A stretch of DNA of 64,000 nt from Ilex aquifolium. Lineage: Eukaryota; Streptophyta; Magnoliopsida; Aquifoliales; Aquifoliaceae. This document shows, in pieces, positions 16,501 through 34,500 of this stretch. Under the pieces are notes generated by a model that saw only the letters and a program-made list of their open reading frames with translations, did not search any database and was not told where the DNA came from. The stretch spans positions 31,526,492-31,590,491 of the forward strand of contig OX637402.1 in the NCBI GenBank assembly GCA_951799425.1. The letters are read 5' to 3'. The position numbers and the translations under genes were made by a program. Position 1 is the first letter of the stretch; each line of letters begins with the position of its first letter.

Positions 16501-19500
16501 CTTGGAATAGCAGCAAGAGGACGTAGGGTCTCATACTCAAGCCACCGCTGGGTCAAATAACCATAATAATAATGAACGGTCATATCTCCCTGCCAGCATA
16601 TGAGAGCTCCTAAGAAAGCTCATAAACATGAACTCCCTGTCCTGACTGAGAATACATGTAATTACCCGAAAAAAAAAATTATTATTTTATTTTGGTGCAT
16701 TGGTTACCTAGGAGTAATTATATATATATAAGGATAAAAATAATTAAAGAAGACTAATATGTCTCTAATAAAAGTCTTATCCTAGAGATACATATTAGGA
16801 CTCTTATACATGTGATTTTAAATATGGTAGTATTGTGGGATAAGTCAAACTCTTCATATATATATGTATAGATATATATATACATATATTCTCTTCCCAA
16901 CACCTATACATACGTTGAATAAGAAAAATGAGGGAGAGGCTAGAGTTTCAAGTAAAGAAAAAGGAAGAGAAAGAGGGAAGAAAAAAAGAAGAAGGAAAAA
17001 GAAGAAGAGATTTGGACTCATTTAAGGTATGAATTCATTAATTATTGGTAGGTTTGTAAGTTATTCAATTACATAGTATTAAGGTTATCATAAATAGTGA
17101 TAAAGAATATATATATGTTCATGGTGAAGAATAGTGATAAATGTATAAATGAGTTTTATTAGAAGTTGTTAATTTAAGTGTTTTGAGACTTAGTATAGAT
17201 TTATTGTTTTGAGGCCTTTAAAGAATTTATTTAATGTCTTACAAAGCAAAAAGAAAACAAAAAGGGAAGAAGAAGAAAAGTTGCAGAACCTGCAACTTAT
17301 GTTGGTGAAGAAGATGGAATTCTTTAGAACTACAGAAAGCTCCCCTTAGTTTTAAGTAGTTGTATTTTGATCCCTATACTTTTATAAACTCAATTTTTGA
17401 CTACCATGGAACTTGGTAATTTATAGAACTGACTCAATATATTTGAAATATATTTGAAACAAATATGATCATTTCAAAACAGTCCCCGAGTCTTGAAAAA
17501 CTTCTGAAATTTTGAAACGACCCCTATAAGTTTCGATTAAGTATTTAAATAATCAACGGTTACTCTAATAAGTCAAATTGAGGTTGTATTATTGAAAAAT
17601 GGGTCTCTATAACCTTAAGCACTATTCTGAAAATTTTGTGGCAGCCTCGAAAATAGAAAAATTCGTTTTTAAGAAAATTACACTTTGACCCCAAAAGTTA
17701 CAAAAATTATGATTTGACCCCAAAACTTTAGAAACTTTTTCTAAACAGCCCAGAATGCTTCTATACCCTATTACCTCATATTGGAAAGGATATTTATAAG
17801 TAAAAGATATACTAAGTATATATCAAGGGGTAGGAGGTATAAAAATTAAATATAAAATCGCGAAACGACGAAGTTAGGAATAGAGCTTGATTGTTATCTG
17901 TTATTTTGGATTAGGTGGTGATTGCATTGAAATTGAGAAAGAGTGCTTTGAATTGGATTTTGGAAATCAAGGTGAGTAGTTTACTACTTCTTTTGGGAGA
18001 ATTTTCTATATTAAATGTGTGGGTGCGTGTGTGTGGATTTTTCATATGTATGATATATGTGTTGATGTTTGGGGTTGCAATTAAATATTTTGCAAATGTG
18101 AACTGTTATACATGTGAATTTTGGAAAATTTGTGGGATGATTTTATATCATTGTTTTGGTGATGAAAGGGAAATTTTGTGTGTGTTGGGACTGAAACTAC
18201 AGTTTTGGTGTGTGTGTGAAAATCATGTTTATGAGACGGGGACTAGATTACCAGGTCTAAATGGTAACGAGATTGTATACCGGCGTGGTCGGTATAGGGA
18301 TGTGCACATAGGGGCCAGTCATCAGGCTAGTGATGACAAGAGATGGGGCTAGTTACCAGGCTAGTGGTAACAAGAGACGGGGCCAGTCATCAGGCTAGTG
18401 ATGACAAGAGACGGGGCCAGTTACCAGGCTAGTGGTAACAAACATGATTTGACAAATGTATTTGAGACTGAATTTGTGTGGGTGTTTTGGATTATAAATG
18501 TCTTTTCATTTATAAAATTATTTGTGAAAATGAGTGGGTGTTTTGAGTTATAAATGTCTTTTCATTTATAAAGTTATTTGTGATCATGAGATTATTTTGT
18601 TTACATGATTATGTGTGATGGATTTGGGTACAATTTGTTGTACTTATGTATGTATCAAAGTTTATTTTGTATATAAACTGTGGGATTTATTTTCACACCT
18701 CATTAGAGGTGGTTGCTATTCACGGGCCTTTGTGCTCACCCAAACATTTAACATTTTTCAGGTGAGGATCAGGGGGAGGAGTAAGTCCTCGGATAGACAA
18801 GGGATTAGAAGAATAGAAGATTTATTTTATCATAGGTCTTCAGGAATAAATGTCTTTTATAGTTTTCAGACAAGTATTCAATTGTTTTGTGAACAATGTT
18901 GCTTATGTTTAGGGTAGTGAACCTTATGGATTAATTATTGTTTTATATGAGTTTAATAATAATATCGGTGATGTTAGCTTATTCCTCTGGTATTCATTAG
19001 ATCGGTGGAATGGATCACTTTATTATTTGTCTTCCGCTGTATTTGCATTTAATATGCACAAAGTTTGTTGGTTAAGGCCTTGGTGGCCGGTCCGCCGCCC
19101 ACCCTATGTGATCCGGGGTGGGGGTGTGACAAGAGTGGTATCAGAGCATAGGTTTATGAATTACCAGAGGATTAGGCTGGATCTGAGTGGTTGTGTAGGC
19201 TTTAATTGACTTTAGTTTGTGGGATAGAGAATGATGTTTATTAGTTAATAGCATGATTGGTGTAGTGACTAAGGCTAGTTAATTTGTTTGGTATTTTGTA
19301 CAAACAAGAGATAGTTGCAAAAAGGGATGGTAAGGGTGTTGTAAGAAATGTGACTGACACTAACGGAATTTTAGGGTTTATACATTCTTCCGTGTCTGCT
19401 AGAGTAGTAATGAGATTGATTGTAGAACTCAAAACACTTGAGTTTGATTTGATCGGGGCAACTCTTATGGGTGGTTTTGAGTTAAGAGATGTCGTGTACT

Positions 19501-31500: not shown

Positions 31501-34500
31501 GAAGAAGAAGAAAAGTTGCAGAACCTGCAACTTACGTTGGTGAAGAAGATGGAATTCTTTAGAACTACAGAAAGCTCCCCTTAGTTTTAAGTAGTTGTAT
31601 TTTGATCCCTATACTTTTATAAACTCAATTTTTGACTACCATGGAACTTGGTAATTTATAGAACTGACTCAATATATTTGAAATATATTTGAAACAAATA
31701 TGATCATTTCAAAACAGTCCCCGAGTCTTGAAAAACTTCTGAAATTTTGAAACGACCCCTATAAGTTTCGATTAAGTATTTAAATAATCAACGGTTACTC
31801 TAATAAGTCAAATTGAGGTTGTATTATTGAAAAATGGGTCTCTATAACCTTAAGCACTATTCTGAAAATTTTGTGGCAGCCTCGAAAATAGAAAAATTCG
31901 TTTTTAAGAAAATTACACTTTGACCCCAAAAGTTACAAAAATTATGATTTGACCCCAAAACTTTAGAAACTTTTTCTAAACAGCCCAGAATGCTTCTATA
32001 CCCTATTACCTCATATTGGAAAGGATATTTATAAGTAAAAGATATACTAAGTATATATCAAGGGGTAGGAGGTATAAAAATTAAATATAAAATCGCGAAA
32101 CGACGAAGTTAGGAATAGAGCTTGATTGTTATCTGTTATTTTGGATTAGGTGGTGATTGCATTGAAATTGAGAAAGAGTGCTTTGAATTGGATTTTGGAA
32201 ATCAAGGTGAGTAGTTTACTACTTCTTTTGGGAGAATTTTCTATATTAAATGTGTGGGTGCGTGTGTGTGGATTTTTCATATGTATGATATATGTGTTGA
32301 TGTTTGGGGTTGCAATTAAATATTTTGCAAATGTGAACTGTTATACATGTGAATTTTGGAAAATTTGTGGGATGATTTTATATCATTGTTTTGGTGATGA
32401 AAGGGAAATTTTGTGTGTGTTGGGACTGAAACTACAGTTTTGGTGTGTGTGTGAAAATCATGTTTATGAGACGGGGACTAGATTACCAGGTCTAAATGGT
32501 AACGAGATTGTATACCGGCGTGGTCGGTATAGGGATGTGCACATAGGGGCCAGTCATCAGGCTAGTGATGACAAGAGATGGGGCTAGTTACCAGGCTAGT
32601 GGTAACAAGAGACGGGGCCAGTCATCAGGCTAGTGATGACAAGAGACGGGGCCAGTTACCAGGCTAGTGGTAACAAACATGATTTGACAAATGTATTTGA
32701 GACTGAATTTGTGTGGGTGTTTTGGATTATAAATGTCTTTTCATTTATAAAATTATTTGTGAAAATGAGTGGGTGTTTTGAGTTATAAATGTCTTTTCAT
32801 TTATAAAGTTATTTGTGATCATGAGATTATTTTGTTTACATGATTATGTGTGATGGATTTGGGTACAATTTGTTGTACTTATGTATGTATCAAAGTTTAT
32901 TTTGTATATAAACTGTGGGATTTATTTTCACACCTCATTAGAGGTGGTTGCTATTCACGGGCCTTTGTGCTCACCCAAACATTTAACATTTTTCAGGTGA
33001 GGATCAGGGGGAGGAGTAAGTCCTCGGATAGACAAGGGATTAGAAGAATAGAAGATTTATTTTATCATAGGTCTTCAGGAATAAATGTCTTTTATAGTTT
33101 TCAGACAAGTATTCAATTGTTTTGTGAACAATGTTGCTTATGTTTAGGGTAGTGAACCTTATGGATTAATTATTGTTTTATATGAGTTTAATAATAATAT
33201 CGGTGATGTTAGCTTATTCCTCTGGTATTCATTAGATCGGTGGAATAGATCACTTTATTATTTGTCTTCCGCTGTATTTGCATTTAATATGCACAAAGTT
33301 TGTTGGTTAAGGCCTTGGTGGCCGGTCGGCCGCCCACCCTATGTGATCCGGGGTGGGGGTGTGACAATACATCTCTGATAATGTGTTCCATAACTTCAGA
33401 ACAGAGCTATAAAACTGGTGAATCCTGCAAACAGATGGCTCCATCGAGCCAAATAACCATCCAAGAATGGCGCAGTTCTTAGAGAACCACGCAGAATATC
33501 CAGGGTCGTCATCAACTGGCTTTGGGTGAGATCCCGTCAACCAACCAAGCTTCCCTACACGGCCTAAGAAAAGTTGGAATGAGCGAGACCACTCAGCGAA
33601 GTTACGACCATTCAACAACTGTGCCGTAACTTTCTGAGAGATCATGTCCGGCAGTGCTGGTAATGCAACTGTGCCAATAGGTACTGTATACTGGTCAAAC
33701 ATAAAGGTGGAAGTACCAATAGAGGTCTCAACGGTAGAGGTGTCAACAGTAGGGGTCTCAAATCCCTCAGTAGTGGTCATAACAATAATACTAGGGCACC
33801 CGTGACAGAAAAACAACTCTAAAATAAATAGAGAGATAAAATAAGGGAGAACAATATACCTCCAGTCGACCAATAACGACAAATAAAGAAGGTCCAGAAA
33901 GCTCCCAAATAATTAGATCACGGTGCCCAGAAAAACAACTCTAAAATAAATAGAGAGATAAAATAAGGGAGAACAATATACCTCCAGTCGACCAATAGTG
34001 ACAAATAAAGAAGGTTCAGAAAGCTCCCGTAAATATAAATAATGGATCTACTGCATCAAGAGCAGATCAACGGAGAAGAGAATTCAACCCTCTTAAAAGT
34101 CTAGAAGCTGCGACACTACAACAAAGAGGGCGAAGCACGAAAACGCACGAAGGCAAAGAACCAACAAATTGGCGTTTTAACGAAAACAGTTGCTAAATCA
34201 GATTCCAACAACTAGACAACCCAAATTCCATAACTTTCAAAAGAACAACCCAGTCAAACAATCACAATCCAGCCCAAAAGAACGGTTGAATTCTTCTTCA
34301 AGGTGCAGCAACAAACAGTCAACGAACAAGTTAACAAAGAGGAGCAACGTGAAAAAGAGTACAGTGTAAAATCAACCGGTAGAAATCACAAAAAATTAAA
34401 CACTGTTCATTCGGTGAACAGCGCCGAAATTACTGTTCACGCTCTGTGAACAGTACCGATGTTACTGTTTACCAAGTGAACAGTGTTTTCGGCACTGTTC

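What the first reader, a model, noticed from the sequence alone, without database searches (positions are those of the whole stretch)
16652..33371. One gypsy insertion site carrying four LTRs and three internal domains in perfect 4745-bp register
The only 5-bp target duplication (ATACA) lies at the outer ends, so this is one insertion enlarged afterwards rather than three insertions. Four LTRs with three internal domains are much rarer than solo LTRs, which the opposite recombination product gives. The units differ by only a few bases, so the expansion is recent and copy number may vary between individuals.
Basis: seen in the sequence. Interest (0 to 1): 0.72.

Follow-up and report, generated by a model that had tools for sequence, protein, structure and literature searches.

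The report
Four-LTR retrotransposon array in holly
A defunct mobile element in a holly chromosome was stretched, after it had landed, from one copy to three head-to-tail copies, most likely by mispaired recombination between its repeated ends; this is a known process, here unusually easy to read because each end carries its own small mutations.

Summary
Window 16652-33371 has four LTRs (2475, 2466, 2466, 2466 bp) alternating with three 2279-bp internal domains. One 5-bp target duplication (ATACA) lies at the outer ends; five of five fetched paralogous empty sites have it once. One correction: the first LTR start-to-start spacing is 4754, not 4745, because LTR1 lacks an 11-bp deletion (and an extra TA) shared by LTRs 2-4.

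That difference is informative. Deletion and TA are absent from LTR1 and from 11 of 11 other LTR sequences compared, so they arose after insertion and were then copied. LTRs 2 and 3 look like the 3' LTR on their left and lack its private changes on their right, as stepwise unequal recombination inside the LTR predicts. This speaks against a concatemer formed before insertion, which the TSD alone does not exclude.

The genome matches English holly, chromosome 12. The element is a non-coding Ty3/gypsy-type derivative, nested in a copia-type copy inside intron 1 of a serine carboxypeptidase-like gene. Two more TSD-flanked arrays occur in this genome, and Wukong and Cassandra make such arrays. Read support and copy-number variation were not testable. 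A clean new example of a known kind.

The parts
16652..16656 (+). 5' copy of the target-site duplication, ATACA
   Evidence: a single ATACA in 5 of 5 fetched paralogous empty sites
16657..19131 (+). LTR1 (2475 bp), the original 5' LTR; keeps the ancestral 11 bp at 16977-16987 and the shorter TA run; private changes at 16792, 17161 and 17300
19132..21410 (+). Internal domain 1 (2279 bp); PBS-like TGGTATCAGAGC at 19136-19147, polypurine tract AAGGGGGAGAGAA at 21398-21410; no ORF of 100 aa or more inside
   Evidence: PBS and PPT recognised from recalled plant LTR-element motifs
21411..23876 (+). LTR2 (2466 bp), read as chimeric: left part as LTR4, right part without LTR4's changes; exchange point between 22046 and 23756
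23877..26155 (+). Internal domain 2 (2279 bp); private A at its position 1241, T at 596 shared with domain 3
26156..28621 (+). LTR3 (2466 bp), read as chimeric like LTR2; one private change (position 1662 in LTR1 numbering)
28622..30900 (+). Internal domain 3 (2279 bp)
30901..33366 (+). LTR4 (2466 bp), the original 3' LTR; 11-bp deletion and TA gain shared with LTRs 2-3; private changes at positions 2356 and 2437 in LTR1 numbering
33367..33371 (+). 3' copy of the target-site duplication, ATACA
33307..33882 (-). ORF covering part of the host copia-type element (Retrotran_gag_3) into which the element inserted; its first 60 bases (33307-33366) overlap the end of LTR4. The host sequence resumes left of 16652
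   Evidence: E 1.3e-6; the left-hand ORF 16134-16583 gave no Pfam match; flanks contiguous in paralogues
15515..34935 (-). Intron 1 (about 19.4 kb, GT..AG) of a serine carboxypeptidase-like gene, holding the copia-type copy and the array; about 0.2 kb in the neighbouring paralogue
   Evidence: coordinates counted by hand

Best explanation
A non-coding Ty3/gypsy-type element inserted once (TSD ATACA) into a copia-type copy. Its two LTRs then picked up separate mutations; the 3' LTR lost 11 bp and gained TA. [quoted passage not shown] A second round of the same kind gave four LTRs and three internal domains. Shown: structure, single TSD, empty sites, shared derived indels, unit-specific variants. 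Inferred: that the exchange was a crossover between chromatids or homologues, and that there were two rounds.
For: Single outer TSD and 5 of 5 fetched paralogous empty sites. The 11-bp deletion and TA gain are in LTRs 2-4 only; LTR1 and 11 of 11 other LTR sequences lack them (the text check printed the 11-bp region in 10 of 11, the alignment covers all 11). The three private LTR1 substitutions lie at positions 136, 505 and 644 and the two private LTR4 substitutions at 2356 and 2437, so the middle LTRs read 3'-LTR-like on the left and free of LTR4 changes on the right; the chance of this order is 1/21 counting the two indels, 1/10 without. Internal domains 2 and 3 share T at 596 where domain 1 and the nearest relative have G, which suggests two steps. 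Fewer changes per site since expansion than since insertion (ratio about 4 or 6, p 0.054 or 0.027). The deletion product is common: 7 solo LTRs among the 10 insertions at 98% or more, 6 of the 7 with perfect 5-bp TSDs.
Against: No marker is derived in LTR1 and shared with LTRs 2-3, so the right half of the chimera rests on LTR4's changes being absent, which could also postdate the expansion. Few markers. The deletion could instead have spread between LTRs by gene conversion. Position 596 varies in the family (G 3, C 2, T 1 of 6 copies). A self-derived cDNA would give the same chimera. The older C10 array shows no such chimera (best fit 37 of 61, permutation p 0.26).
Confidence: 0.82

Rival explanations
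1. cDNA capture: RNA of this same element was reverse transcribed and the cDNA recombined into the resident LTRs, as tandem multimers form with yeast Ty1 (recalled). Such cDNA LTRs take U3 from the 3' LTR and U5 from the 5' LTR (recalled), so they would show the same chimera.
For: Same predicted pattern in LTRs 2 and 3; the exchange interval 645-2355 could hold the R region.
Against: None of the 11 other LTR sequences compared carries the 11-bp deletion, so among these there is no sign that this locus's RNA was reverse transcribed; the internal domain has no ORF of 100 aa. Solo LTRs show frequent LTR-LTR recombination among the close copies.
Confidence: 0.08
2. The array was assembled before insertion by template switching during reverse transcription and inserted whole (Sabot and Schulman model).
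For: Single outer TSD, units alike. The C10 array in the same genome is star-like (30 or 31 changes private to each LTR), as this model would allow.
Against: The model makes the outer LTRs identical at insertion, yet LTR1 lacks an 11-bp deletion shared by LTRs 2, 3 and 4. It would need LTR1 later converted by an undeleted copy, or the deletion spread to two further LTRs by conversion.
Confidence: 0.04
3. Assembly artefact: a single or shorter element expanded by a repeat walk or by merging haplotypes.
For: The array (16.7 kb) may exceed many HiFi reads, and no reads were available. Two haplotypes with different unit numbers could have been merged.
Against: All four LTRs and all three internal domains differ from each other at specific sites; a repeated walk gives identical units, and two single-copy haplotypes give at most two internal versions. 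The published assembly is 36x HiFi by hifiasm, contig N50 15.2 Mb, QV 64.2, with no N here.
Confidence: 0.06

Closest known systems
Wukong TRIM elements of maize (PMC4528315; passages and section 13 read)
   Same: Head-to-tail LTR/internal arrays: of 89 intact elements eight have three LTRs, five have four, two have six and seven; the abstract suggests unequal crossing over.
   Different: Wukong is a miniature element; this one has 2.5-kb LTRs, and here LTR-specific mutations give a record of the order of events.
Cassandra tandem arrays (PMC7215508; abstract, outline and Discussion read)
   Same: Alternating LTRs and internal domains, arrays of 12 repeats, non-autonomous; recombination and template switching both discussed as origin.
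   Different: Cassandra LTRs are short and carry 5S RNA; the Discussion reports no differences between repeating units, whereas units here do differ.
Complex Angela, Squiq and Opie insertions (PMC1950507; whole text read)
   Same: Extra internal LTR, full internal domains, flanking 5-bp TSDs.
   Different: Explained there by template switching with outer LTRs alike; here the outer LTRs differ by a deletion shared with the middle ones, which points to change after insertion.
C12:14.407-14.421 Mb array in the same genome (L031/L032)
   Same: Three LTRs, two internal domains, outer TSD AACGT, nearly identical units.
   Different: Distinct family (2060-bp LTR, about 4-kb internal domain); too few variants to test the chimera.

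Membership tests
Multi-LTR tandem array made by unequal recombination after a single insertion | Alternating LTRs and internal domains in one orientation | tested here: met
Multi-LTR tandem array made by unequal recombination after a single insertion | One TSD at the outer ends only, empty site with one copy | tested here: met
   (5 of 5 fetched paralogues)
Multi-LTR tandem array made by unequal recombination after a single insertion | Middle LTRs chimeric: left from 3' LTR, right from 5' LTR | tested here: inconclusive
   Left side shown by two shared derived indels; right side only by absence of LTR4 changes; order chance 1/21
Multi-LTR tandem array made by unequal recombination after a single insertion | Unit number varies between chromosomes of the species | not testable with these tools
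Ty3/gypsy LTR retrotransposon (non-autonomous derivative) | TG..CA LTRs, 5-bp TSD, PBS and polypurine tract | tested here: met
   (PBS/PPT identity recalled)
Ty3/gypsy LTR retrotransposon (non-autonomous derivative) | RT before integrase in the coding region | tested here: inconclusive
   No ORF of 100 aa and no significant Pfam match in the pieces of the internal domain; order met in relative L045, which shares LTR stretches and three stretches of the internal domain
Template-switching complex | Outer LTRs from one reverse transcription, identical at insertion | tested here: not met
   11-bp deletion and TA gain shared by LTRs 2-4 but not LTR1; met only if later gene conversion is assumed

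The most novel reading that the evidence does not exclude
The array is a still-changing length polymorphism inside intron 1 of a serine carboxypeptidase-like gene: holly chromosomes carry different numbers of 4745-bp units (or a solo LTR), and intron length or antisense LTR activity changes the gene's expression. A variant: the added units came from the element's own cDNA rather than from crossing over.
Probability: 0.12. Interest if true: 0.45.

Novelty: new member of a known kind. Interest (0 to 1): 0.27.

Why it matters
A single outer TSD does not tell expansion after insertion from insertion of a ready-made concatemer. This locus helps to tell them apart, because the original 3' LTR had apparently lost 11 bp before the copying and LTRs 2-4 share that loss. 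It gives a worked example and a simple test (polarise LTR differences with other copies) for other multi-LTR elements. With two more TSD-flanked arrays in the same genome, holly looks a convenient place to measure how often LTR-LTR recombination expands rather than deletes.

Tried and rejected
Three independent insertions or fusion of neighbours: rejected, one outer TSD and empty sites with contiguous flanks. Penelope-like or DIRS-type tandems were thought of because the internal domain is short; set aside because of TG..CA LTRs, tRNA-type PBS, PPT and 5-bp TSD (motifs recalled). Testing the chimera on the C10 array: 61 informative substitutions (31 and 30), best single-breakpoint fit 37 of 61, permutation p 0.26, so no chimera seen there; 30 further sites are private to the middle LTR and one differs in all three; some of these counts look like microsatellite or gap misalignments that I did not remove. 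In the 15-row alignment the LTR1-LTR4 distance is 7, two of which are gap-placement artefacts; 5 is used, from the four-row alignment. A search for terminal repeats of the host copia-type copy across the two flanks gave none. L038 was fetched and not analysed; L013 held no match to the element. A paper search for the assembly span found nothing useful. Paper PMC186626 (Devos 2002) is not held. Paper searches with 'multi-LTR', 'three LTRs', 'recombinant complex' and 'Ilex' listed no paper whose title names this locus; I read only listings there and make no claim beyond those searches.
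Full report
Source. The window is contig C12:31526492-31590491 of an 800,232,872-base assembly in 103 contigs. Contig lengths 62,197,019 (C1), 37,412,598 (C9) and 30,299,755 (C18) equal the longest, N50 and N90 scaffold lengths printed for Ilex aquifolium drIleAqui2.1, English holly (PMC11109700, passages read); the window is then on chromosome 12. The fit is not perfect: the paper gives 104 scaffolds, 800,663,922 bp, and 59.41 Mb for chromosome 2, where C2 has 59,399,592. That assembly used 36x HiFi, hifiasm and Hi-C.

Anatomy. LTRs lie at 16657-19131 (2475 bp), 21411-23876, 26156-28621 and 30901-33366 (2466 bp each), with three 2279-bp internal domains between them, and ATACA at both outer ends. 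The internal domain starts with AGAGTGGTATCAGAGC, a PBS of the plant initiator-tRNA type (recalled), and ends in a polypurine tract. LTR starts are 4754, 4745, 4745 apart. The finding's 'perfect register' holds from right of the LTR1 indel onwards, where offset 4745 matches at 11609 of 11618 positions.

Class. No ORF of 100 aa or more lies inside the internal domain. Five open pieces in and around it gave no significant Pfam match; the best was RVP_2, E 0.05. A 92-aa piece has relatives across the genome (98 matches, the window's three included). One relative locus, L045, has LTR stretches 87 and 89% like this one (and a short one at 75%) and a longer interior that shares three stretches with the window's internal domain. 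Its four open pieces match, in order, Retrotrans_gag, zf-CCHC and RVP_2; RVT_1; RT_RNaseH and Integrase_H2C2; SH3_Tf2-1, the order of Ty3/gypsy. The window's element is thus best read as a shortened, non-coding derivative.

One insertion. The left 300 bp and right 301 bp flanks each have 40 scored matches (capped lists), and in several places the two matches meet with a 5-bp overlap. Five such places were fetched, and five of five show a single ATACA at the junction.

Order of events. Differences among the four LTRs were polarised with 11 other LTR sequences, which I count as 9 insertions. LTRs 2, 3 and 4 share an 11-bp deletion and one extra TA; LTR1 and 11 of 11 others lack both (the text check printed the 11-bp region for 10 of 11, the alignment covers all 11; L019 is slightly shorter in that purine run but lacks the deletion). 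LTR1 has three private substitutions (positions 136, 505, 644), LTR3 one (1662), LTR4 two (2356, 2437), LTR2 none. The deletion is therefore younger than the insertion and, unless it spread by gene conversion, older than the copying. The middle LTRs took their left part from the 3' LTR, and their right part carries neither of the 3' LTR's private changes, as expected if it came from the 5' LTR. The exchange would lie between positions 645 and 2355. The chance of this left-right order is 1/21 counting seven changes, 1/10 counting substitutions only; this part is suggestive, while the shared deletion is direct.

Two steps. Internal domains 2 and 3 share T at position 596; domain 1 has G, as do three of six other copies including the closest (two C, one T). 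Domain 2 has a private A at 1241, where six of six others have C. The simplest reading is duplication to two units, then duplication of the 3' unit.

Age. LTR1 and LTR4 differ by 5 substitutions in 2464 sites: about 78,000, 145,000 or 406,000 years at 1.3e-8, 7e-9 or 2.5e-9 per site per year (rates recalled or assumed, none measured in holly). Change per site since expansion is about 4 or 6 times lower than since insertion, on counts of 5 against 3 or 2 (p 0.054 or 0.027).

Family background. (40 of 482 candidates scored) lists 15 places at 98% or more over the 1001-base LTR query: this array's four LTRs and 11 others, all fetched. The 11 are seven solo LTRs (L015-L021), six of them with perfect 5-bp TSDs (L020 has lost its LTR start); one two-LTR element (L009, two places); and one element whose 5' LTR seems to be split by an insertion: L012 and L014 lie about 17 kb apart, differ by 3 substitutions, and share TATGT at the outer ends. 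Deletion by LTR-LTR recombination is thus the usual fate among these, and this array the opposite product.

Other arrays. C12:14.407-14.421 Mb: three 2060-bp LTRs, two internal domains, outer TSD AACGT, 1 variable site in the LTRs and 2 between internal domains. C10:27.29-27.30 Mb: three LTRs, two internal domains, outer TSD TTTTG; its LTRs are about equally distant from each other and show no chimera, so its origin stays open. C12:10.73 Mb and C11:7.64 Mb show LTR-internal-LTR and the start of a second internal domain; the right end of the first was not fetched. Of 77 pattern sites I followed the same-strand neighbours at four places besides the window: one full array (C12:14.4 Mb), one partial (C11), two on C17 that do not look like such arrays. 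C10 and C12:10.73 Mb came. Counts are lower bounds, since the DNA searches score only 40 candidates each.

Setting. Left and right of the copia-type copy lie the two parts of a serine carboxypeptidase-like gene on the minus strand. Exon 1 matches Peptidase_S10 positions 1-49 and the next exon 49-89, and the junctions read GT and AG. The neighbouring paralogue aligns at 42500-43212 and 40281-42432 with only about 0.2 kb of intron; here intron 1 is about 19.4 kb (15515-34935, counted by hand). The array lies antisense to the gene. Whether the intron is spliced, and whether the gene is intact, was not tested.

Verdict on known kinds. Arrays with four or more LTRs are published: Wukong (section 13 read) and Cassandra (Discussion read). 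Template-switching complexes with outer TSDs are published too (whole text read); in that paper's Triticeae sample there were 70 solo-LTR formations, 20 recombinant and 2 template-switching complexes. This locus is a new member of a known kind. Its value is that it carries its own record of order, which the TSD alone does not give. Read support and copy-number variation remain untested.

Noticed in passing
window about 1-43200 (minus strand; further repeats to about 48430): Cluster of serine carboxypeptidase-like gene copies; the copy split by the array has a roughly 19.4-kb first intron against about 0.2 kb in its neighbour.
   Followed up: partly
L047 (C7:31488500-31493200): Tandem 1829-bp units, 99.6% alike, each holding a 340-bp stretch like the 3' end of the C12:14.4 Mb family's LTR; one search lists five such places about 1.8 kb apart. 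Possibly a satellite in the making.
   Followed up: no
L010/L011 (C10:27290000-27306000): Three-LTR array with outer TSD TTTTG whose LTRs are star-like (30, 30 and 31 substitutions private to the 5', middle and 3' LTR) while its two internal domains differ by only 28 substitutions in about 2300; unexplained, perhaps conversion between internal domains.
   Followed up: partly
L031/L032 (C12:14405000-14424000): Another very young three-LTR, two-internal array with outer TSD AACGT, on the same chromosome.
   Followed up: yes
window 57663-58619: Inverted repeat with 332-bp arms 99% complementary, overlapping a 220-bp unit duplicated in tandem at 58014-58454.
   Followed up: no
L012 and L014 (C14:11599493-11621184): A sister element whose 5' LTR appears to be cut by an insertion of roughly 14.6 kb; TATGT at the outer ends.
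   Followed up: partly
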